From assembly GCA_963681505.1 (NCBI GenBank), contig OY811972.1, positions 10,893,320-10,957,319 of the forward strand: a stretch of DNA of 64,000 nt, read 5' to 3'. Position numbers and translations under genes: made by a program. Under the pieces are notes generated by a model. The model worked only from the letters and a program-made list of their open reading frames with translations. It had not been told where the DNA came from and made no database searches. This document shows positions 1,767 through 62,589 of the stretch, in pieces. Source of the stretch: Eunapius fragilis (taxonomy: Eukaryota > Porifera > Demospongiae > Spongillida > Spongillidae). Position 1 is the first letter of the stretch. The number at the start of each line of letters is the position of its first letter.

Positions 1767-2052
1767 ACAAGTAAATAAAAACATTCTCTACGAGAAAGTT
1801 GGTGGGATATAGGATTTGATTATGACATTGGTGGTGTAAAAAGCAAGGAAAAAAGGTCTTATCAGAAGGGAAAATGTCATAGTCCTATATTTAGCACATT
1901 TCTAGGGCATGTGTTGTTTGTGTGCTAAATATGGGACTATGACATTTTCCCTTCTGATAAGACCTTGTTTCCTTGCTTTTTACACCACCAATGTCATAAT
2001 CAAATCCTATATCCCACCAACTTTCTCGTAGAGAATGCTTTTATTTACTTGT
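1767..2052. repeat. Foldback (long inverted repeat) of copy I
   Basis: Near-perfect palindrome starting ACAAGTAAATAAAA and ending with its complement. The arms are about 125 bp around a loop of about 30 bp. Each arm contains GATATAGGATT and, near the centre, TCCTATATTTAGCACA. A transcript would form a long hairpin. Confidence 0.9.
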
Positions 2053-2415
2053 TTTCTTAATTTTTTTTCATATATTATATAAAAGCGAGTCCTCCAGCCG
2101 ATTCTGAAGCTATTGGTGAAATTTTCATCGCTTAGAAATGTTCCTGTCCTGAGTTATGCGTTGCCAAGAAGAAGGAGGAGAAGGAGAATAAGAAGACGAC
2201 CCGCCCCTTGTTCCGAGACTGGGTACGAGGACGGGCAGTACACTCTTGTTCTCAACAACCACGCGGTTCAGCGACATGAAACAAAAACGAAACTACTCAT
2301 TTTTGACTTCTAGATCGATTGCTAAAACAAGCTACACGATCCGATCGTCGGGAGTGTTGTTACAGACGGGTCGCGTTTTTTAAAATGACTTCATAGTCGT
2401 GGTCAAATCCTATAT

Positions 2416-2437
2416 GGAAGTTTCTAACGAAACTTCC
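2416..2437 (-). other. 5' terminal hairpin of copy I
   Basis: On the minus strand the stem GGAAGTTTC pairs with GAAACTTCC around a GTTA loop, directly after the terminal TC. The same geometry is found at 18550-18571, 57375-57396 and 61354-61375 with different stem bases. Confidence 0.8.
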
Positions 2438-2700
2438 GATACATGTATACCACAAGCGTGGTTTTGTAGGCCACAGCATGAAGCAGTATGTGAACTACAT
2501 GTACCTTAGTCCAGATAACCACAAATTTGACAGAGAGCTGATAATTCTATAACTGCTTCTGGGTTTGTTTTTGAATGCCAATGTCTCTGTCTTTGACAAT
2601 GCATATGGCATGATTTTTGAAATAGATGCTGGCCTCATGAAGGCACTTGCCCAGGAGACTACTGCTGATTGCAGATTTCCATCTTAATGTGCCCCTCCTC

Positions 2701-13159: not shown

Positions 13160-13462
13160 ACAAGATATAAAAATTTAATTAAAATAAAATTGGTGATGTA
13201 GGATTTGTAGACAGCAATTGAGTAAAAAGTAAGGAAACAAGGAATTACGGATATTAGGCATTCATTTAATTATAAATATTACAGACCTACATTTAGCACA
13301 GAATTTCAAGGAGGTAGATTTGCTAAATAATGTAGGTCTGTAATATTTATAATTAAATGAATGCCTAATATCCGTAATTCCTTGTTTCCTTACTTTTTAC
13401 TCAATTGCTGTCTACAAATCCTACATCACCAATTTTATTTTAATTAAATTTTTATATCTTGT
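13160..13462. repeat. Foldback of copy II
   Basis: Near-perfect palindrome, ACAAGATATAAAAATTT at one end and its complement at the other, with arms of about 135 bp. It contains TTGGTGATGTAGGATTTG and, near the centre, ACCTACATTTAGCACA. These align with the foldbacks of copies I and IV, although the rest of the arms is very different. Confidence 0.9.
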
Positions 13463-13543
13463 TTCACACATTTTTATGCTAGGCGCTGTACATGTAAGCC
13501 GGGATCCGCCTGTGGTAATAAGCTAAAATTATAAACATGTATT

Positions 13544-14021
13544 CAGGGGCGGATCTAGGATATCGGAGCGAGGGGGGGAAAGTGATCGCGGTAAGGGACA
13601 CGCCCACACAGCTAGGGGGTATGGGGGAGCGCTGTAAGCTCCCCCATCGGGGTCTGGGGCTCCGCCCCAGCCGCTTTGCAACTTTCACACTTTTTAAGTC
13701 ACAAAACATAGCATAATTGCGTAGTAGCAGATATAATATCTAGTGAATGAATAGTTTTTCCCTCTTGCGCTCTGCCATTATGTGCCTTAGAGGTGCCAGA
13801 TCTTAACAAGGACGACCATTCACACACAGTGCCATTGACTTGGCTGTTTCCGAAGCCAAGGTTCCCACATTTGTGTAACTGATTACCTGTATTGTGTTGT
13901 TTATTTATACATTTATTTTTGTTATAAAAAAAAAAAAATGAATATTACTACGGCGGTCCAGCGGGGGGGGGGGGGGGAATTCCCTAGTTCCCCCCCCCCC
14001 CCCCCCCTGGATCCGCCCCTG
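13544..14021. mobile_element. CAGGGGCGG-type element inside copy II
   Basis: Starts CAGGGGCGGATCTAGGA and ends TGGATCCGCCCCTG, flanked by GTATT on both sides, which reads as a 5-bp target duplication. The interior has the GC hairpin (GGGGCTCCGCCCC near 13660), an A run and paired G and C runs near 13965-14007. It inserted after copy II. Confidence 0.7.
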
Positions 14022-14221
14022 GTATTATATCAGAGATACATGTATTGAATAATCGTGCCGTGTAATGCAAGATTACTTCTCATGGCGAGGAAGTATTCAT
14101 CCCTGCGCAATCACATGCATGCTCGTAACTAAACTGTCTTAACTTGGTCGGAAGATCGATACGGCGCAAACGGTAGCCCTGCTATATAGCATTCAAAAAA
14201 ACATTAGTTGTAATTATAAAT

Positions 14222-14509
14222 TTACGTATTTTTCGACACAAGGTGAAGTCCACCCCTCCCCCTTCCTCGCCGCCTTCTATACGGCCGAGCTCCAGGAGGC
14301 CCCCAGTACGGATGGGGCCATATTCCCCATGGGGCTGGGGCCAGCGGTGGAGCTGGGGCAAGCAGAGTGTGGGCCAGCAGAGCAGGTGGAGCTGGGGGCA
14401 GTGGCGGAGCTGGGGCCAGAGGTGGGGCAAGCAGGACCGGTATCGGAGAGTAGGGACCCTCCTCACCCGAGTCAACAGCAAACAGATTCTCAGCTTCTTC
14501 TGCCGTGAC
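14222..14509 (-). CDS. Exon 2 of the MPSR-type gene in copy II
   Basis: After a TTGTAG acceptor the minus strand is open for 95 codons and ends TAA (14222-14224). It begins acidic (VTAEEAENLFAVDSGEEG), becomes alanine/proline-rich (repeats of LAPAPPL), passes through tryptophan-proline motifs (WGIWPHPYWGPPG) and ends in an arginine/glycine block (RRRRGRGRGG). The same order, acidic then proline-rich then RG-rich, is seen after 59221 in copy IV. An RG tail usually means RNA or nucleic-acid binding; that function is inference. Confidence 0.5.
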   Translation of the reverse strand, partial: VTAEEAENLFAVDSGEEGPYSPIPVLLAPPLAPAPPLPPAPPALLAHTLLAPAPPLAPAPWGIWPHPYWGPPGARPYRRRRGRGRGGLHLVSKNT

Positions 14510-14770
14510 CTACAAGGGTAATAATAAATATTATATAGACATAATGCCATGCATGCAAATCCTATGTACACATGCATACCTCTTCCATATCTTAAAGTAA
14601 AGAGTGAGTGAGAAAATTTGCTTTATATAAACCAAAACTGATCTAATACGAGGGAAGGATTAAATTATTGGAACGGCCTCGCATAATAAATGTGTTGAAC
14701 AAACCAACTATATATGCGGTGGTGGGGGTGGGGCTGAATTAAGACGGCCTGCATTTCAAATGGCTAGTAT

Positions 14771-16000
14771 TTGCTGATATATGTGAAACTGCACACAATC
14801 ATGTGTAGAGAGAGGCCTAGGGTTGCTGCCACTTTAACTTATGCATGGGTAAAAATTACAATGATGTACTTGAGAACACAGGTTGCAGCCATAGAGATTT
14901 TAAGTCCACATGCTGGGACACCATACATGGAATCATGCAGGAAGTTAGTTAATCCTGCAAAGCATAAATCACTTATCCAAATTGAAACTATTAGAAAAGA
15001 GCTGCATGTAATAGGTAACTGGTTCCAGCTGAAAACAGGAGAACATCATGGAGGATGATTGGTGGTCCATGTGCATGTTTTAGCAGCCATAGAAGCTAGG
15101 TTTTAGACCACCACACACTGTGCCACCATATATGGAGGAAGGGGCAGGCTTGTGGTTTTATGAATGCAAAGTTGCAAGATAAATGCTGACACAGAGAAAC
15201 ATGTTAGACTCCTTGACATATGAACAGATACATGGGAGGGAGGCAAGCCTATTTTTAAGAGCAGTTTTGTATAGAGAACGTACAGCAACTGATATAAGGA
15301 TTGGATTGTGAGTTAAGTACAACATATAATTGTGTGAACTCATATTCTGGGGTTAGGGCCTATAGAGACAGATCCATTAATTTACATGCAGTCAAGGTCA
15401 CAGCTGCAACCCCATTTGCCATTTGATAATCCTGCAAAGCATAAATCTCTTAGTCAGAGTGACAGCTCTTAAAAGAGCTGTAATTGGTTCCAGATGATGT
15501 ACTGGAGAACCCAGGGAAGGTTCAGGTTTGCAGCCACAGTATATGTGTCAAAGTTTAAGACCACATGCTGGGACACCACACATGGAATCATGCAGGAAGT
15601 TAGTTAGTCCTGCAAAGCGAGGCAGATAGATAGCTCTTAAGAGAGGTGCATGTAATAGGTTCCAGCTGAAAATTAGAGATCATCATGGTCCTGCATGTTT
15701 TAGCAGCCATAGAAGCTATGACACATACTGGGCCACCAAATATGGTATCCATACAGGAAGGAGGCAAGCATGTGGTTTTATAGACTGTACAGCTGTAAGA
15801 TAAAATATTGTTTACACAGAGAACCTAGGGATCATGTTTTAGCAGCCATAGATGCTACATCCTGTATGGCGAGGTTTAAAAGACACATGCTGGGCCACCA
15901 TATATGGTATCCATTGACAGGCATGTGGTTTTATCCTTGTAAAAATATAATAGTCAACATTCACAGACATGTAGTGTGAATGTGGTATAAAAATCCCCTC
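14771..16000. repeat. Diverged large tandem repeats in the copy II intron
   Basis: Blocks containing CATGCTGGGACACCA, AATCATGCAGGAAGTTAGTT and TTTTAGCAGCCATAGA recur at about 14906, 15560 and 15840 in the same order with variable spacing. They occupy the intron between the two exons of the copy II gene. Confidence 0.6.
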
Positions 16001-16158
16001 AGAGAGTATCAAAGCTGGCAAGCATATACTCCAATGCAAACTGATCTGGCGTTATTCGTTTTCCTATCTCGCAGACGAACACACGCACACGATACAATAC
16101 ATCGGTCCCATGCGTGTAGGACATGCATATTGCATCCAAACATTGCAAACACTCCTAC

Positions 16159-16616
16159 CTCATAGTATTTCTTTTCCTGCAGCTGGCAGCTGTTTATCCT
16201 AATAGAGATATCTCTCTTGGCCTTTGGATTTGCCTGATATTGATCTTGTTTGGAGGCTAAAATCAGTTCTCGATTTTGATCATAGTAGGCCTTCACGCTA
16301 TCCTTCTTTCTTTCCGGATCAAGCCAGTATTGGGCCTTAGCGGTCTCCTTCTTACTTTCCGGATCAAGGCAGTATTGGGCCTTCGCGCTATCCTTCTTAC
16401 TTTCCGGATCAAGCCAGTATTGGGCCTTCATGCCTTCATGCTATCCTTCTTACTCTCAGGATCGGCTTTGTAGCGCTTCCTGTCGCAAGTCTTCTTTTTT
16501 TTCATGCGCTTCTTGAAAACTGTCACGCTCCTCAATATCTAGCGACTCGCCAACACAATAGTCATCATTTAACTTTGCGATCGATTCTTTTCTCTTCGCG
16601 ATCGACGTGACGGCAT
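16159..16616 (-). pseudogene. Exon 1 of the MPSR-type gene in copy II, broken
   Basis: The minus-strand ATG at 16616-16614 sits in the same context as the starts at 58016 and 61877 and reads MPSRRSRREKNRSQS before a stop at 16569. Further along, other frames give RYKADPESKKDS and repeats of QYWLDPESKKDSAKA, clearly the same repeat as YKADPEKKKASVR in copies IV and V. A short duplication near 16425-16440 shifts the frame. A GAG|GTAGGA donor follows QEKKYYE. It is therefore a dead or heavily diverged copy. Confidence 0.65.
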
Positions 16617-16910
16617 TTTGAAGAAAACAAACCAGACACGCCAAGCTTTTGGTATACAACCGTGACAACAATTGAATAGTAACTGTAGCGCATGCACTAT
16701 ATGAAATATAGAACGTGTTCAACCACACGTTCCCGCCCACTTTTATGTCTTCCAAAGGCCGATAAAATCTGTTGTGGGCTATACTAACAAAACTAAGTTT
16801 GCTAGAGATTGAAATTTGTGTCAAGCATAACTCTCGTTACTAACATAATAAAACAAATCTAACTCGACAATAAGTTTCTAATTTGTTGGTTCTAGTGCTT
16901 CCGCATAACA

Positions 16911-18336
16911 GAAGAAGAAGAAGAAGAAGAAGAAGAAGAAGAAGAAGAAGAAGAAGAAGAAGAAGAAGAAGAAGAAGAAGAAGAAGAAGAAGAAGAAGAA
17001 GAAGAAGAAGAAGAAGAAGAAGAAGAAGAAGAAGAAGAAGAAGAAGAAGAGAAGAAGAAGAAGAAAAGAAAGAAGAAGAAGAAGAAGAAGAAGAAGAAGA
17101 AGAAGAGAAGAAGAAGAAGAAGAAGAAGAAGAAGAAGAAGAAGAAGAAGAAGAAGAAGAAGAAGAAGAAGAAGAAGAAGAAGAAGAAGAAGAAGAAGAAG
17201 AAAGAAGAAGAAGAAGAAGAAGAAGAAGAAGAAGAAGAAGAAGAGAAGAAGAAGAAGAAGAAGAAGAAGAAGAAGAAGAAGAGAAGAAGAAGAAGAAGAA
17301 GAAGAAGAAAGAAGAAGAAGAAGAAGAAGAAAGAAGAAGAAGAAGAAGAAGAAGAAGAAGAAGAAGAAGAAGAAGAAGAAGAAGAAGAAGAAAGAAGAAG
17401 AAGAAGAAGAAGAAGAAGAAGAAGAAGAAGAAGAAGAAGAAGAAGAAGAAGAAGAAGAAGAAGAAGAAGAAGAAGAAGAAGAAGAAGAAGAAGAAGAAGA
17501 AGGAAGAAGAAGAAGAAGAAGAAGAAGAAGAAGAAGAAGAAGAAGAAGAAGAAGAAGAAGAAGAAGAAGAAGAAGAAGAAGAAGAAGAAGAGAAAGAAGA
17601 AGAGAAGAAGAAGAAGAAGAAGAAGAAGAAGAAGAAGAAGAAGAAGAAGAAGAAGAAGAAGAAGAAGAAGAAGAAGAAGAAGAAGAGAAGAAGAAGAAGA
17701 AGAAGAAGAAGAAGAAGAAGAAGAAGAAGAAGAAGAAGAAGAAGAAGAAGAAGAAGAAGAAGAAGAAGAAGAAGAAGAAGAAGAAAGAAGAAGAAGAAGA
17801 AGAAGAAGAAGAAGAAGAAGAAGAAGAAGAAGAAGAAGAAGAAGAAGAAGAAGAAGAAGAAGAAGAAGAAGAAGAAGAAGAAGAAGAAGAAGAAGAAGAA
17901 GAAGAAGAAGAAGAAGAAGAAGAAGAAGAAGAAGAAGAAGAAGAAGAAGAAGAAGAAGAAGAAGAAGAAGAAGAAGAAGAAGAAGAAGAAGAAGAAGAAG
18001 AAGAAGAAGAAGAAGAAGAAGAAGAAGAAGAAGAAGAAGAAGAAGAAGAAGAAGAAGAAGAAGAAGAAGAAGAAGAAGAAGAAGAAGAGAAGAAGAAGAA
18101 GAAGAAGAAGAAGAAGAGAAGAAGAAGAAGAAGAAGAAGAAGAAGAAGAAGAAGAAGAAGAAGAAGAGAAGAAGAAGAAGAAGAAGAAGAAGAAGAAGAA
18201 GAAGAAGAAGAAGAGAAGAAGAAGAAGAAGAAGAAGAAGAAGAAGAAGAAGAAGAAGAAGAAGAAGAAGAAGAAGAAGAAGAAGAAGAAGAAGAAGAAGA
18301 AGAAGAAGAAGAAGAAGAAGAAGAAGAAGAAGAAGA
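16911..18336. repeat. (GAA)n giant trinucleotide satellite, about 1.4 kb
   Basis: Almost uninterrupted GAA/TTC repeat with occasional one-base slips that switch frame between Lys, Arg and Glu codons. The long reading frames on both strands are artefacts of the repeat. On the minus strand it sits exactly where other copies of the hairpin element have a short CGTCGTCTTCTTCTT tract (57606-57622 and 61585-61615), so it is an expansion of that tract. Confidence 0.95.
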
Positions 18337-18549
18337 TGGAGAAACTTTTTTTCAGGTTCGAGTGTGGGAACAAGAGAGCGTTATCTCTGTTGTCTGAGCT
18401 TTCTAAGCGTCGGCAGTTTTATTACATTGTAGGTAATTGTTGGCTGTATCCAAATACGCTCGCTAAAGGCCAACTGATTCTACGGTGCAACGGCAATAGT
18501 GGAATCTGGTGTTTTGCTAATCGTCTTCATCACACTTCAAATCCTACAT

Positions 18550-18571
18550 AGGACCTACTAACGTAGGTCCT
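18550..18571 (-). other. 5' terminal hairpin of copy II
   Basis: Stem AGGACCTAC pairs with GTAGGTCCT around GTTA. It is preceded on the minus strand by TC and followed by ATGTAGGATT. Confidence 0.8.
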
Positions 18572-18659
18572 GATAAATGTATTCTCTTATTTAATAGTTA
18601 TTAATTAATTTTAAAAATAATAATAATTGTTTAGGGCTAGGGTTGGGGTTAGTTAGGTT

Positions 18660-26538: not shown

Positions 26539-47852
<21,314 letters not shown>

Positions 47853-48587: not shown

Positions 48588-48876
48588 CGTGAAGCTATTG
48601 GTGAAAATTTTAAAAAGTGTTCCTATCGGAACCTATCCCGAGTCATGCGTGGTCAAGAAGGGGTACTGGTAACGAGAGCGGGTAGGACCCCCCTTTTTTT
48701 TCTCTATGGCCACGCGGTTTTGCGACATAAAAAACGGCGAAACGGATCGTTTTCGTCTTCGCGTTCGATTACATCAACTAGCTAAACGATCCGTCTCGTT
48801 ATAAACGGTCGCGTGTTTTAAATGTTCAAGTTCATCGTCGGGGTCAAATCCTATATATACGTAGCGAAACTTCCGA
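48588..48876 (-). mobile_element. Hairpin/foldback element, copy III (5' fragment)
   Basis: On the minus strand it starts with TC at 48876 and GGAAGTTTCG, then TATATAGGATTTGACC, and continues with sequence aligned to copy I (2105-2439) down to the GAAGCTATTGGTGAAA match. The hairpin's second arm has decayed, and neither gene nor foldback is present. It lies between the divergent receptor and RCC1 genes. Confidence 0.6.
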
Positions 48877-49333: not shown

Positions 49334-50557
49334 ATGGCTGTGTACTCGTGGGGGTTCGGTAAATATGGTCAGCTCGGCACGGGAGAGACGAAAAACTGCG
49401 AGCTGCCCCAACGCCTGAAACTCCCCTCAGGAGCCTATCCGGTCAGGGTGTCGTGTGGGGCCCACTTCACTCTAGTGGTGTGCAAGAGAAGAGCGCGAAA
49501 GTGCGAACCGGACGACTCGCCATCGGACGGAGGGACGGCGCTGTTTGCGTGCGGGTGGGGGAAATACGGACGGCTTGGAGTCGGATCTGAGGAAAACCAG
49601 TTCGTGCCGGCGGAACTGGTGGCGTTGCTCGGTGCCGACCCAGCGGAGGTGTCGGCCGGCCACTGGCACGCGGCCTGCGTCACCGTCAAAGGAGAGCTGT
49701 ACGTCTGGGGATACAACAAATCGATCGGTGTCGGTCCGGAATCTCCTATCTCCGCTTCAGTTTTGGTTCCGAGGCGGATAGCGGGTCTGGAGTCCGTACG
49801 TTTCAAAAGCGTCTCCTGTGGCTACAATTACACATATGCCATAGACGAGGGAGGCGTGTGCTACTCTTGGGGCTGCAACAAGCATGGAGTGTTAGGCCAG
49901 GGTGACGTCATAGACAGGCCCAACCCACAAGTTGTTGTCTTTGGAGGCGAGTCGGTATCGCAGGTCAGCTCCGGATATTCGCACGCGGCGGTAGTGACCG
50001 TCCGCGGATCTCTGTACACGATCGGGAGCGGCAGTTGTGGTCAGCTAGGTCACGCGCGTGATAAATCTGACAAATTCGTGCCGACGAAAGTTGCAGGGCT
50101 CGTCGGAGTTGACGTGGTGGACAGTAGTTGCTCCAAGGGCGAACACCACTCGCACACAATAGCTTGCTCGCGTGACGGTCTCGCTTACTCTTGGGGCGAC
50201 GGGTACAAGGGCAAATTGGGACTAGGTAGTCAGGAGTCGACCGGTTTGCCCACCCTCATCGATCCAACCCACTTCCTGGGCGAGAGAGTTGCGCGCGTGT
50301 CTTGCGGAGGCATCCACAGCGCTGCCGTTACGGACGGGGGACGAGTATTCACGTGGGGGTGCGGGAGCGACGGCCGCCTGGGACACGCGGAAGCCAAGGG
50401 ACACAGGTACCTGTTCAGGAGCGACGTACCTAGACTGGTGGAGGAGCTGGCACCACAGGAGAAGGTGGACGATAAACCGCGCAGGTGCATCGCGCTGTCG
50501 TGTTCTTACTACCACACGGCTGTTCTCTGTGACGAACACAAAGCTGCACTGAGCTGA
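49334..50557 (+). CDS. RCC1-repeat protein (seven-bladed propeller), intronless
   Basis: 407 codons from ATG to TGA without an intron. Seven RCC1-type repeats are visible from their Y-x-W-G and G-x-L-G motifs: VYSWGFGKYGQLGTGE (residues 3-18), FACGWGKYGRLGVGSEE (about 72), YVWGYNKSIGVG (about 125), YSWGCNKHGVLGQGD (about 180), YTIGSGSCGQLGHA (about 231), YSWGDGYKGKLGLGSQE (about 286) and FTWGCGSDGRLGHAE (about 345). Conserved S-x-G-x-x-H turns (SCGAHFT, SAGHWHA, SSGYSHA, SCGGIHS) sit between blades. It is a stand-alone propeller with no BTB, HECT or membrane part. RCC1-fold proteins serve as exchange factors or scaffolds; the specific role here is unknown. It is visibly richer in G+C than its surroundings, and a transposon begins 15 bases after the stop. 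Confidence 0.88.
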   Translation: MAVYSWGFGKYGQLGTGETKNCELPQRLKLPSGAYPVRVSCGAHFTLVVCKRRARKCEPDDSPSDGGTALFACGWGKYGRLGVGSEENQFVPAELVALLGADPAEVSAGHWHAACVTVKGELYVWGYNKSIGVGPESPISASVLVPRRIAGLESVRFKSVSCGYNYTYAIDEGGVCYSWGCNKHGVLGQGDVIDRPNPQVVVFGGESVSQVSSGYSHAAVVTVRGSLYTIGSGSCGQLGHARDKSDKFVPTKVAGLVGVDVVDSSCSKGEHHSHTIACSRDGLAYSWGDGYKGKLGLGSQESTGLPTLIDPTHFLGERVARVSCGGIHSAAVTDGGRVFTWGCGSDGRLGHAEAKGHRYLFRSDVPRLVEELAPQEKVDDKPRRCIALSCSYYHTAVLCDEHKAALS

Positions 50558-57350: not shown

Positions 57351-57374
57351 CACCGGCGCTGTGGTTTTTATATC

Positions 57375-57396
57375 TGAACCTGCGTCAGCAGGTTCA
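57375..57396 (+). other. 5' terminal hairpin of copy IV
   Basis: Stem TGAACCTGC pairs with GCAGGTTCA around loop GTCA. Confidence 0.85.
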
Positions 57397-57730
57397 ATAT
57401 AGGATTGATTGAGGAATGATGAATGTCATTAAAATTTTTAAATCGCGTCGGGAGGGACAACGGAGAAACGGATCACTTATCTCGTTGCAGCAATCGAACG
57501 ACAACACCAAGATCTACGTTTTCATGCTAGTTTCATGTCATTAAACTATGTGCTTCCAGACAAACAAAGAACCTGCTTCTCGTGCCCATTCCCAAAAAAA
57601 TTGTTCGTCGTCGTCGTCTTCCTTAGGAAGGTATAACTCGAGCTACGAACGGTTTTAAAGAACGAAAATAGTACCAATCTCTTCAGAATTTACCGGCACG
57701 TTATCCTAGCATGTCATTTGGACACATATC

Positions 57731-57893
57731 ACATCTAGAAAGAAACTACAGCGAGAAATACCCTATTTTGTTGCAAGTTCTATGGCCATCTAGCAAGTTT
57801 TAGCAAGTTCTTAACATCTAGAAAGAAACTACAGCGAGAAATACCCTATTTTGTTGCAAGTTCTATGGCCATCTAGCAAGTTCTAGCAAGTTC
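57731..57893. repeat. 83-bp tandem duplication in the copy IV promoter region
   Basis: CATCTAGAAAGAAACTACAG through AGCAAGTTCTTAA occurs twice with one base difference, just upstream of the TATA box. Copy V has a diverged single version. Confidence 0.8.
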
Positions 57894-57919
57894 TTAATAA
57901 AATGTATAATTTTAGGGGG

Positions 57920-57927
57920 TATAAATA
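57920..57927 (+). promoter_or_regulatory. TATA box of the MPSR gene, copy IV
   Basis: TATAAATA followed by CTCCAACAGGCAC, 96 bases before the ATG. The identical box and downstream context occur at 61792 in copy V, supporting a real core promoter. Confidence 0.7.
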
Positions 57928-58015
57928 CTCCAACAGGCACTAAATTTATTTGGTGTTCCTAATATCGCAGTTTAGTCGTTACCTTACTTTGGCTAGTGAA
58001 GTTGTTTTTCTAAAA

Positions 58016-58653
58016 ATGCCTTCGCGTAATCAAAAGAAGAGATCTAAGCAACGAGCGGAATACCTCCAAAAACGAGAAGATATTTTATCACAAGAGAACA
58101 AGGCTAAAGCCCGAGCGCGCTACAAGGCCGACCCTGAAAAGAAGAAGGCCTCTGTACGCGACACCTACAACGCAAATGCTGTATCTAAGCGTACTGCTAA
58201 AAGGCAGCGATATCAAGAGGGCGTCGAGGAGAACCGTGCTGCTAAAAGGCAGCGATATCAAGAGGGCGTCGAGGAGAACCGTGCTGCTAAAAGGCAGCGA
58301 TATCAAGAGGGCGTCGAGGAGAACCGTGCTGCTAAAAGGCAGCGATAACAAGAGGGCGTCGAGGAGAACCGTGCTGCTAAAAGGCAGCGATATCAAGAGG
58401 GCGTCGAGGAGAAACGTGCTGCTAAAAGGCAGCGATATCAAGAGGGCGTCGAGAAGAACCGTGCTGCTAAAAGGCAGCGATATCAAGAGGGCGTCGAGGA
58501 GAACCGTGCTGCTAAAAGGCAGCGATATCAAGAGGGCGTCGAGGAGAACCGTGCTGCTAAAAGGCGGATATACAGGGGCAATTCAGCTACCATTAAGGCA
58601 GCTAGAAGGAGTCGGTATTGGAAGGGTCGTAGAACTACCACTACCACCAAAAG
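58016..58653 (+). pseudogene. MPSR-type basic repeat protein, exon 1 (copy IV, nonsense mutation)
   Basis: Starts MPSRNQKKRSKQRAEYLQKR, then KARARYKADPEKKKASVRDT, followed by nine or so 14-residue repeats (RQRYQEGVEENRAAK). In the fourth repeat the usual TAT codon is TAA (58346-58348), giving a stop after 110 residues. All other repeats keep TAT, so this is one point mutation. Beyond it the frame continues to KAARRSRYWKGRR and threonines, ending at AG|GTATGT in phase 2, which fits the acceptor at 59220. The repeats should form a highly basic helical rod, possibly nucleic-acid binding. From memory similar repeats precede larger Helitron-like proteins in sponges; this is not verified. Confidence 0.65.
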
Positions 58654-59220
58654 GTATGTTATAGCATGCTGTATGTAGCATTTAAAATCTAAGGGCTGCT
58701 TTGCACGTGGCTCATGGCTTCCCTGTCATGCACACATTAACACATTTCTTGTATGCCTGCATACCGTATTATCAGATGTACAGTAAGGCTTCCCAGTTTC
58801 CTTGTACACGTAAAGGTCAATGTTTGTACAAAAGGTATTTGTGCATGCATCTGTGTCTGTACATTATTGTATATTAGTTATCTGATGTTGAAGAAAGGAC
58901 TAGACACGTGTTTATAGTACAAGTTTGTCATGCGCATCCACCCTTTGCTGCAGCTGTGTTTAATTGTTATCAGATGTACAGTAAGGCTTCCCACAAGTAA
59001 AAGTTCCCCCATGTACATGTAAAGGGTTAGGTCAATCTTTGTACATGTCACGTTGTTTTAAAGGTCCACTACACGTGTGTACAGAAGTGTTACCCAAAAT
59101 TGAGTTGTATGAAAATGAAATAATTCATGTAATGCGCAATTGGTGAAATGTTTTGATGCATGTATAAGGCATAATGTGTGGTAAAATAAAAGTACTGCAA
59201 CCCTATCTTCTCCCATATAG

Positions 59221-59510
59221 TTACTCCCTGTTTGAGCCCAACTCTCGCACACTAGCAGAGTATGGAGTGAGTCTTGAAAAAGCAATTCTTAGGGATAGTG
59301 AGCTTCTCAGTGAAGTGGGGCAGCGGTGCTGCCCCCGCCAGCGCTACCAGCAGTAGCGCTGCCCCTGCCACTGCTCCCCCCAATGCTGCCCCCGCCTTTT
59401 TTCCTGCCCCCGCCACCCGCATGGCCATATCCAAGACGGGGGGGGGGGGGGGGGGGGAGAAGAGGAAGAGGAGGGAGAAGAGGCCGAGGACGTGGAACTA
59501 TAATTAATTA
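59221..59510 (+). pseudogene. MPSR gene exon 2, copy IV (frameshifted)
   Basis: After a CATATAG acceptor in phase 2 the frame reads YSLFEPNSRTLAEYGVSLEK, AILRDSELLSEVG and then stops at 59356. One frame over, the proline-rich part (LPPPALPAVALPLPLLPP, FFLPPPPAWPYPRR) and a glycine/arginine tail (RRGRGGRRGRGRG) follow. The order equals exon 2 of copy II, so a small deletion has shifted the frame. A G run at 59440-59457 may be the unstable site for the tail. Confidence 0.6.
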
Positions 59511-59641
59511 TATTAAAAACAATTATACATTATTAATTAACTATGTGTTCTATAATTTATTACTTTAATTATTAAAATCATATTGTAAAAGTTTATACGT
59601 TCTTTGACACGAAGAAAAAAAAAGAAAAAAAAACTTATAAA

Positions 59642-59938
59642 ACAAGTAAATAAAAACATTCTCTAACGAGAAAGTTGGTGGGCATATAGGATTGACAATG
59701 TTGGTGTAAAAAGCACGGAAACAAGTGTGACAGAAATGTTACTGGAAAATTGAAATAGGCCTATATTTAGCCCATTTTCTCAGGCGTGCGCTGCCTAAAT
59801 GTGACTGGGCTAAATATAGGCCTATTTCAATTTTCCAGTAACATTTCTGTCACACTTGTTTCCGTGCTTTTTACACCAACATTGTCAATCCTATATGCCC
59901 ACCAACTTTCTCGTTAGAGAATGTTTTTATTTACTTGT
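59642..59938. repeat. Foldback of copy IV
   Basis: Near-perfect palindrome with ACAAGTAAATAAAAACATTC at the left and the complement at the right. The arms are about 130 bp, with GCATATAGGATTGACAATG and a central GCCTATATTTAGCCCA. Confidence 0.92.
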
Positions 59939-61351: not shown

Positions 61352-61353
61352 TC

Positions 61354-61375
61354 TGAACCTGCGTCAGCAGGTTCA
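61354..61375 (+). other. 5' terminal hairpin of copy V
   Basis: Identical to that of copy IV (stem TGAACCTGC, loop GTCA). Confidence 0.85.
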
Positions 61376-61791
61376 ATATAGGATTGATTGAGGAGTCATG
61401 AAGTCATTAAACATTTTCAGTTGCGTCGCGAGGGACAACGAAGAAACGGATAGCTTTTCTCTTTGCAGCAATCGAACGACAACACCAAGATCTACGTTTT
61501 GGTGCTAGTTTCATGTCATAAAACTATGCGCTTCTAGACCAACTAAGAACCTGTTTCTCGTGCCCATGCCCAAAAAAGTTGTTGGTCGTCGTCGTCTTCT
61601 TCTTCTTCTTCTCCGTCAAGTATAACTCACGCTAGGAATGGTTTTAAAGAACGGCGATAGTACCAATCGCTTCAGAATTTACCGGCGCGGTGCCCCTTAA
61701 GGTAATAAAGAAGCTACAACGAAAAAGTACTATATACGGTATGGGTATATTACTTTGTTCTAAATACAGGAGTATGGATAATTTTAGGCAG

Positions 61792-61799
61792 TATAAATA
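61792..61799 (+). promoter_or_regulatory. TATA box of the MPSR gene, copy V
   Basis: TATAAATA followed by CTCCAACAGGCAC, 85 bases before the ATG, as in copy IV. Confidence 0.7.
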
Positions 61800-61876
61800 C
61801 TCCAACAGGCACAAAATTTATTTTGGTGTCAGTTTAGTCGTTACTTATTTTGGCTAGTGAAGTTGTTTTTCTAAAA

Positions 61877-62122
61877 ATGCCTTCGCGTAATCGAAAGAAG
61901 AGAACGAAGCAACGAGCGGAATACCTCCAAAAGCAAGAAGAGAACAAGGCTAAAGCCCGAGTGCGCTACAAGGCCGACCCTGAAAAAAAGAAGGCCTCTG
62001 TACGCGAGAGCTACAAGGCCGATCCTGAAAAAAAGAAGGCCTCTGTACGCGAGAGCTACAAGGCCGATCCTGAAAAAAAGAAGGCCTCTGTACGCAATAA
62101 ATACATACGTAAAGTTATATAG
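61877..62122 (+). CDS. Short MPSR-type protein, copy V
   Basis: 81 codons to a TAG stop, starting MPSRNRKKRTKQRAEYLQKQ. Three perfect-looking repeats of 14 residues (YKADPEKKKASVRE) follow, then a terminal NKYIRKVI. Intact within its exon but lacking the second exon's proline and RG-rich part, so it may be either a truncated relic or a minimal expressed form. An ATG 27 bases upstream is in frame, but the homologous start in copies II and IV favours this one. Confidence 0.6.
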   Translation: MPSRNRKKRTKQRAEYLQKQEENKAKARVRYKADPEKKKASVRESYKADPEKKKASVRESYKADPEKKKASVRNKYIRKVI

Positions 62123-62589
62123 TAACTTGTGGTCGGGGCAATGCACAAAGCGTTCGTAAGGTATAGACATTTGTCCATTGCACATCGTTCCTCATCACAT
62201 TACAGTTATGAAGCTTCGTTGACACGGAGAAAAAAAAACTTATGAAACAAGTAAATAAAAACCTTCTCTAACGAGAAAGTTGGTGGGCATATAGGATGGT
62301 GTAAACATAGATATTAGAGTAGAAGGATAGGAAACGCAGCCAATTAACACGACCTAACACCTGCAGTCCGCATAGTTCTCGTACCCATGCCACCATCATG
62401 GCTCGATGCCAAGTCGCATATCCAGAAATGCCCCATACATTGGAGGACATTCATAAAAAAATTCCAAATTGAATTCTATAACATTTTAACATATAGCGGA
62501 ATTTTTTTTCTTTCCACTATAAAAATTTGAGTGTCAGATTTTTATGGATTATGAAGTTAAAATCAAGATATGTTTTTTAATTACTACAT

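What the first reader, a model, noticed from the sequence alone, without database searches (positions are those of the whole stretch)
57373..57396. Five-copy element family with a covarying 5' hairpin
The 5' ends at 2439(-), 18573(-), 57373(+) and 61352(+) each read TC, then a 9-bp stem, a GTYA loop and ATRTAGGATT. The stem sequence differs between copies I, II and IV/V (GGAAGTTTC, AGGACCTAC, TGAACCTGC), yet every substitution in one arm is matched in the other. Copy III (48876-) keeps one arm only and is a fragment. Such covariation means the hairpin itself is functional, as DNA end recognition or as RNA. Together with the gene and the 3' foldback this looks like an undescribed mobile element type.
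Basis: seen in the sequence. Interest (0 to 1): 0.9.

Follow-up and report, generated by a model that had tools for sequence, protein, structure and literature searches.

The report
Helitron family with covarying terminal hairpins
The repeated hairpin is the front end of a large family of Helitrons, copy-and-paste "rolling-circle" jumping genes; hairpin-ended relatives are already known, but in this family the hairpin is separate from the repeat shared by both ends and the far end is one long palindrome.

Summary
The hairpin lies at the exact 5' end of a Helitron. Inserts read A|TC...CTTG|T without target duplication; one empty site (a GAGAGTTAC-type insert) matches the joined flanks 108/108. 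The pattern TC-N9-GTYA-N9-ATRTAGGATT, arms free, occurs 1,233 times in the 219-Mb genome against 4 for the reversed pattern; a second tail class adds 1,038 against 11. Of the 200 hits printed, 181 pair 9/9, in six main stem types. Elements with these ends carry Rep and PIF1-helicase domains; the window's "gene" is their N-terminal part. The 3' foldback is the right end: 53 of 127 pairs show matched double changes, 16.5 expected from shuffles. Hairpins at both ends, asymmetric inverted repeats and compensatory changes are printed for Helitron2 (PMC3627910). Here the inverted repeat lies outside the hairpin, the hairpin has no 3' partner, insertion is A|T, and the right end is a ~280-300-bp palindrome. 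I call it a new terminal variant of Helitrons; the hairpin most likely is a shape-read single-strand DNA signal (inferred).

The parts
57373..59937 (+). Copy IV: complete non-autonomous Helitron, 2,565 bp, TC...CTTG, flanks A and T
   Evidence: 57370-57814 and 57814-59316 are 97.4% and 95.7% identical to the first ~1.9 kb of the Rep/helicase-bearing element L061
57375..57396 (+). 5' terminal hairpin, stem TGAACCTGC/GCAGGTTCA, loop GTCA, two bases from the 5' end
   Evidence: DNA fold -9.9 kcal/mol, z -6.59
57397..57408 (+). Left copy of the asymmetric inverted repeat, ATATAGGATTGA, element positions 25-36
   Evidence: 12-nt inverted match to the 3' end, 41-53 nt from that end
58016..58345 (+). 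Truncated N-terminal part of the Helitron protein (15-residue repeats, premature stop)
   Evidence: 108/110 identical to L061:608-1312; no Pfam match in the correct frame
59641..59937 (+). 3' terminal foldback = right terminal sequence: two inverted arms, each with the ATATAGGATTG motif and a TTCTC/GAGAA hairpin
59885..59896 (-). Right copy of the asymmetric inverted repeat (TCAATCCTATAT on +)
59908..59921 (+). 3' subterminal hairpin TTCTC-GTTA-GAGAA, 16 nt from the CTTG end
   Evidence: DNA fold -4.6 kcal/mol, z -3.01 for 59881-59937, 3 of 200 shuffles as good
61352..62297 (+). Copy V: same stem type, about 79% identical to L061; right end broken after the first foldback arm
61877..62119 (+). 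Truncated N-terminal part of the protein in copy V (81 aa)
1768..2439 (-). Copy I: complete 672-bp non-autonomous element, stem GGAAGTTTC, with 3' foldback
13161..18573 (-). Copy II: 5,413-bp element, stem AGGACCTAC, long TTC microsatellite inside, foldback at 13161-13463
   Evidence: similar at both ends to the Rep-bearing C1:5679052-5687559 element
48695..48876 (-). Copy III: decayed 5' fragment of the GGAAGTTTC type, right hairpin arm lost

Best explanation
The copies are Helitrons, rolling-circle transposons of a eukaryotic genome, moved by a Rep(HUH)-PIF1 helicase protein made by full-length relatives in the same genome. SHOWN: the 5' end is A|TC followed by a 9-bp hairpin; the 3' end is CTTG|T at the end of a ~280-300-bp palindrome; an 11-14-bp motif just inside the 5' hairpin recurs inverted 35-53 nt from the 3' end; insertion is between A and T with no target duplication; the stems differ between subfamilies but stay paired. 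INFERRED: the transposase binds the motif shared by both ends (its variants match between the two ends of a type), and the adjoining 5' hairpin is read by shape as single-stranded or extruded DNA to place the first nick two bases outside it. The strand is then peeled off by the helicase, and the 3' hairpin plus the long palindrome is the stop signal. Short copies such as IV are internal-deletion derivatives moved in trans.
For: Ends: 28 of 30 loci have A in front and 29 of 30 begin TC; 16 of 16 copies with both ends have T behind, 14 of 16 end CTTG (all 30 are best matches to copy IV's left end, and two share a duplicated flank); window copies I, II and IV agree, 3 of 3. Empty site: L063 insert against L068, 108/108, no duplication. 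Coding partner: Helitron_like_N and PIF1 above cut-off in L061 and in the GGAACCTAC type. The Rep aligns to Helraiser, E 9.5e-6, across the stretches that I recall as the HUH and two-tyrosine motifs. Of nine Rep genes whose upstream DNA I examined, seven have such a left end 3.4-3.75 kb upstream on the same strand, one of them after subtracting a nested 1,462-bp insert; for the C7 copy the place was predicted from L061 and then found. Covariation: left hairpin 6 of 9 pairs with double changes, 80 of 81 cells paired; foldback 53 of 127 pairs against 16.5 in shuffles and at most 10 when slid; shared motif 11-14 nt in 5 of 5 types, each above the maximum of 300 shuffles.
Against: The 3' end is CTTG, not CTRR. 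The small 3' hairpin is weak: z -3.01 in copy IV, -1.75 in copy I, +0.82 in copy II. Two Rep genes (C1:5626604, C2:6560269; open frames of 1995-1996 aa) have no such left end where expected. I found no coding partner for the GGAAGTTTC, GAGAGTTAC or AGGAACTAC types, and did not search for them systematically. The C7 and C1:11850697 elements were not read through. OTU matches are below the curated cut-off (19.1 and 23.0 bits against 23.3). A second paralogous empty site (L015 against L009, about 83% identity) spans the junction but has a substitution and a one-base gap beside it. Stem length, spacing and most of the loop were fixed by my patterns. Pairing could be kept by template switching. Nothing was tested biochemically.
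Confidence: 0.85

Rival explanations
1. A categorically new mobile element type, with the hairpin and foldback as the ends of an unknown transposition system.
For: The window's open frames have no Pfam match, the ends are unlike canonical Helitrons, and the Rep is far from Helraiser (26.7 bits, against 907 bits for another Helitron of the same genome).
Against: Longer elements with the same ends carry Helitron Rep and PIF1 domains; A|T insertion without duplication; 5' hairpins in Helitron2 are in print.
Confidence: 0.03
2. An ordinary Helitron2 or Helentron family with nothing new at the ends.
For: 5' hairpin, asymmetric inverted repeat, hairpins at both ends, compensatory changes. FoHeli1/2 start TC with a 5' hairpin, and in Chaetomium globosum Helitrons the inverted repeats are said not to be hairpins, so some variation in this point is already in print.
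Against: The inverted repeat lies outside the hairpin in 5 of 5 types and the hairpin has no complement in the last 100 nt (longest 4-6 nt, about the shuffle mean); A|T rather than TT or TTTT|T sites; no endonuclease domain matched in the parts scanned; a ~280-300-bp palindromic right end.
Confidence: 0.25
3. The hairpin is a by-product: template switching keeps the palindrome matched and nothing recognises it.
For: One copy has the loop inverted (TAAC) with the stem intact, as template switching would leave it (C1:7813720).
Against: Left ends found without the pattern, by walking upstream from Rep genes (L067, L068, L070), have the same position two bases from the end, 9-bp stem and GNNA loop. 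When the first loop base was forced not to be G, only 10 of the 100 printed hits were left-end hairpins with at least 8 of 9 pairs. Other stem lengths were not searched for.
Confidence: 0.15
4. The hairpin works as RNA, for instance in a transcript leader.
For: It would also explain paired changes.
Against: It starts two bases from the DNA end of the element, so a transcript holding all of it must begin at or before that end; copies of about 0.8 kb keep it.
Confidence: 0.05

Closest known systems
Helitron2 (Bao and Jurka 2013, PMC3627910; abstract, passages and section 9 read)
   Same: Hairpins at both ends, asymmetric inverted repeats, compensatory changes that maintain the terminal features, no endonuclease domain found here in the parts scanned
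   Different: There the 5' repeat is 0-2 bp from the end and forms part of the hairpin; here it starts at position 24/25, outside it. Helitron-1N1_CRe inserts between TTTT and T/C; here A|T. No giant palindromic 3' end in the passages read
FoHeli1/FoHeli2 of Fusarium oxysporum (PMC5148889; passages read)
   Same: TC start (as its authors assume), 5' hairpin, inverted repeat; a C-GAA-G loop resembles the C-GNNA-G loop here
   Different: Ends in ATTTT; the repeat is in the hairpin; shorter stem; site given as TNAT followed by T or A
Canonical Helitron / Helraiser (PMC4778049; passages read)
   Same: A|T insertion, TC start, 3' hairpin as terminator; CTTG ends also noted there for some mutant Helraiser inserts and maize
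   Different: No 5' hairpin (stated in PMC3627910), no inverted repeat between ends, CTRR end, distant Rep
proto-Helentron-Pi (PMC4067079; section 11 and passages read)
   Same: Inserts between A and T without duplication, has no endonuclease domain, regarded there as an intermediate
   Different: TT start, CTAG end; no 5' hairpin described in what I read

Membership tests
Helitron superfamily | Rep (HUH, two tyrosines) fused to PIF1-type helicase | tested here: met
   Helitron_like_N and PIF1 in one open frame of L041; alignment to Helraiser; motif names recalled
Helitron superfamily | No target-site duplication | tested here: met
   empty site 108/108
Canonical Helitron (Helitron1) | Insertion between A and T | tested here: met
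   28 of 30 A before, 16 of 16 T after
Canonical Helitron (Helitron1) | 5' TC | tested here: met
   29 of 30
Canonical Helitron (Helitron1) | 3' CTRR | tested here: not met
   CTTG in 14 of 16
Canonical Helitron (Helitron1) | Only one hairpin, at the 3' end; no inverted repeat between the ends | tested here: not met
Helitron2 | 5' terminal hairpin | tested here: met
Helitron2 | 5' inverted repeat 0-2 bp from the end and part of the hairpin | tested here: not met
   repeat starts at position 24/25; hairpin arms have no partner in the last 100 nt
Helitron2 | 3' inverted repeat 20-30 bp from the end, upstream of the 3' hairpin | tested here: inconclusive
   35-53 nt from the end; upstream of a TTCTC/GAGAA stem in four of five types, hairpin absent or weak in the fifth
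Helitron2 | RepHel clusters with Helitron2 proteins | not testable with these tools
   no Helitron2 reference protein at hand; Helraiser was the only PDB match
Helentron | Endonuclease domain after the helicase | tested here: not met
   none matched in the frames scanned of L061, L041 and L064; DNA further downstream was not scanned
Helentron | TT insertion site | tested here: not met

The most novel reading that the evidence does not exclude
A third terminal architecture of Helitrons, in which the two jobs merged in Helitron2 are split: a sequence-read motif common to both ends, and a 5' hairpin read by shape alone. The right end is an inverted double terminus whose two arms evolve in lockstep. 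If so, the printed model in which the 5' and 3' repeats pair and melt the 5' hairpin cannot hold here in that form.
Probability: 0.4. Interest if true: 0.6.

Novelty: new variant of a known kind. Interest (0 to 1): 0.45.

Why it matters
How Helitron transposases choose the 5' cut is, to my knowledge, poorly understood. A family with six main, naturally different but paired 5' stems, over two thousand pattern hits and Rep-bearing partners in one genome is a ready-made mutagenesis series. It separates sequence recognition (the shared motif) from shape recognition (the hairpin). Helitron finders built on canonical ends (PMC5148889 says most are) would probably miss these copies because of the CTTG end (inference).

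Tried and rejected
Solo mobile foldbacks: I suspected that the 3' foldback moved alone, but the cases looked at (window 13161-13463, L057, L063) proved to be right ends of ordinary elements.

GAGAGTTAC left end as the partner of the Rep at C1:11855656: rejected, it belongs to a nested 1,462-bp insert; the likelier left end is the GGAACCTAC hairpin at 11850697, seen in the listing.

The 3' end of L061: no intact right end to about 17.5 kb from its left end, only a decayed right-end-like arm in L069; the C7 copy served instead. Stem types with Y at stem position 3: 10 hits, decayed, foldback arms or unrelated. Viral contigs: no relative of the Rep at E 1e-3. My first Pfam scans of the window ORF used a frame off by one; repeated correctly, no match. 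No tree against Helitron1/Helitron2 was possible. That C-GNNA-G is an exceptionally stable DNA loop is recalled; one search listed no paper that I used for it.

Papers: PMC3627910 abstract, passages, section 9; PMC5148889, PMC4778049 and PMC6213432 passages; PMC4067079 section 11 and passages; others only search listings. That the detached repeat and palindromic right end are unprinted rests on those searches alone, and subscription papers and Repbase were not searched.

Full report
WHAT WAS CHECKED. Copy III keeps one arm. The window lies in a 218.9-Mb, 24-contig genome, C2:10893320-10957319.

GENOME-WIDE TEST OF PAIRING. I searched the genome with the two arms left free: TC-N9-GTYA-N9-ATRTAGGATT. 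It gave 1,233 hits; the same pattern read backwards gave 4. A pattern for the other tail class (no T after TAGGA, C-GNNA-G loop fixed) gave 1,038 hits against 11. Only the first 100 of each are printed, all on contig C1. Of these 200, 181 pair at 9 of 9 positions, 15 at 8 and 4 at 7. Six well-represented stem types appear: TGAACCTGC, GGAAGTTTC, AGGACCTAC, GAGAGTTAC, GGAACCTAC, AGGAACTAC. One further copy, AGGAACTGC, differs from the last by one matched A-T to G-C change. On nine left ends of my choosing, 80 of 81 cells pair, 6 of 9 pairs show double changes, and the covariation score is 0.685 against 0.227 in shuffles and at most 0.157 when slid; the count of further pair types does not beat shuffles (9 against 9.5). 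The patterns fixed the stem length, the spacing and most of the loop, so their constancy among pattern hits is no evidence. Three left ends found by walking upstream from Rep genes (L067, L068, L070) have the same geometry. A search for loops not starting with G gave 850 hits (68 in the control); of the 100 printed, many are arms of the 3' foldback and 10 are left-end hairpins with at least 8 of 9 pairs.

WHERE THE ENDS ARE. In 30 loci fetched by similarity to copy IV's left end, 29 begin TC and 28 have A in front. In the 16 with both ends, 16 have T behind and 14 end CTTG (L022 and L026 share a duplicated flank). The window's complete copies I, II and IV also have A in front, T behind and CTTG. 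The best proof is L063: a 1,462-bp GAGAGTTAC-type element sits upstream of the Rep gene of a GGAACCTAC-type element. L068, another copy of that element, has the same site empty. The joined flanks match it 108/108, so insertion was exactly between A and T with no duplication or loss. A second, older paralogous site (L015 against L009) spans the junction at about 83% identity, with a substitution and a one-base gap beside it. No empty site was found for the window's own copies.

WHAT MOVES IT. The genome has 91 Helitron_like_N matches. L061 starts with copy IV's left end and encodes, in broken frames searched apart, DUF6570, Helitron_like_N, PIF1 and Pif1_2B above their cut-offs and a sub-threshold OTU match. 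The GGAACCTAC type has the same order in long open frames, read from two copies (L041, L064); OTU there is just below its cut-off, 23.0 against 23.3 bits. The Rep aligns with Helraiser (7lcc) over 558-833, with GAPHYHVLLW opposite GLPHAHILLI and HYVTGYVTK opposite KYLFKYIYK, but at only 26.7 bits. Another Helitron of the same genome, L031, scores 907 bits. So this is a divergent Helitron lineage beside a Helraiser-like one. I examined the DNA upstream of nine Rep genes. Seven have such a left end on the same strand: C1:21584049 (3,708 bp), C7:6713414 (3,555), C1:5684158- (3,401), C9:6144420 (3,746; stem with one mismatch), C1:1777642 and C1:1405918 (3,497 each), and C1:11855656 (4,959 = 3,497 + the nested 1,462). 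Four of the seven were picked because a hairpin hit was already known nearby. Of the five picked without that (C1:1777642, C9:6144420, C7:6713414, C1:5626604, C2:6560269) three had one; the last two, with 1995-1996-aa frames, did not. Both ends are placed for C7:6709859-6725596 (15,738 bp), C1:5679052-5687559 (8,508 bp) and C1:11850697-11862680 (11,984 bp); the first and last were not read through.

THE WINDOW'S GENE. The open frame of copy IV, 58016-58345, is 108/110 identical to the first frame of L061. In L061 that frame runs into a GTATGT donor-like site, and the Rep frame follows a CCATATAG acceptor-like site, so it is probably exon 1 of the transposase (inference). It has no Pfam match.

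TWO SIGNALS AT THE LEFT END. Just inside the hairpin lies ATATAGGATTGA (or ATATAGGATTTGA, ATGTAGGATTTG, ATATAGGAATC). In 5 of 5 types 11-14 bases recur inverted 35-53 nt from the 3' end, longer than any of 300 shuffles, and the variant in each type matches between its own two ends (for the GGAACCTAC type the two ends come from two copies, L068 and L064). The 24-nt hairpin region has no such partner in the last 100 nt: longest match 4-6 nt, about the shuffle mean. Helitron2 is described with a repeat that forms part or all of the hairpin's 5' side (PMC3627910, section 9), so the arrangement here differs.

THE RIGHT END. Six foldbacks of 283-303 bp are self-complementary at 91.9-94.6%. Across five types RNAalifold predicts 127 pairs, run with RNA energies although the molecule is DNA. 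Of these, 53 show a matched double change, against 16.5 in shuffles (0 of 500 as high) and 3-10 when slid; 97.9% of 623 cells pair. The structure was derived from the same alignment, which favours it over the slid versions. A small TTCTC/GAGAA hairpin lies 16 nt from the CTTG end in copy IV (z -3.01); it is weaker in copy I (z -1.75) and missing or weak in copy II (z +0.82).

MECHANISM. The Helraiser work shows that the left end is essential and that the 3' hairpin acts as a terminator (PMC4778049, passages). By analogy the shared motif is the likely binding site, the 5' hairpin a shape signal beside the cut, and the palindrome a strong terminator. The first two are inference from covariation; the third is analogy. 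The caveat is template switching: a copy at C1:7813720 has its loop inverted with the stem intact, so matched changes need not all be selected.

VERDICT. A true and well-seen pattern, with identity Helitron. It passes the superfamily tests, fails one or more defining tests of each of the three named groups, and is best called a new terminal variant.

Noticed in passing
L031-L036 (C9:2930795, C2:9596102, C1:12743756, C3:9191060, C2:8146314, C1:14046791): A second Helitron lineage in the same genome (Helitron_like_N at 210-220 bits); L031, the one tested, is very close to bat Helraiser (907 bits, E 1.1e-271), while the family of this finding is distant.
   Followed up: partly
C1:7813720-7813753 (-): A left-end hairpin whose loop is inverted (TAAC) while the stem is intact, a possible signature of template switching at the palindrome.
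   Followed up: no
window about 16909-18340: About 1.4 kb of nearly pure TTC repeat inside copy II.
   Followed up: no
L019, 5' flank of its element: A TGAACCTGC-type element inserted inside another element's foldback.
   Followed up: no
L022 and L026: The same insertion with 99% identical flanks at two places; L026 has about 205 extra bases a few nucleotides after the element's 3' end.
   Followed up: no
L073 (C1:5621600-5624400): Tandem repeat of 165-bp spacing upstream of a Rep gene whose element ends are unknown.
   Followed up: no
window 29448-47378 and 49334-50557: A run of similar 65-68-bp repeats on the minus strand spaced as in a multi-exon SRCR gene (two stretches tested match SRCR), and an RCC1-repeat open frame of 407 aa on the plus strand.
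   Followed up: partly
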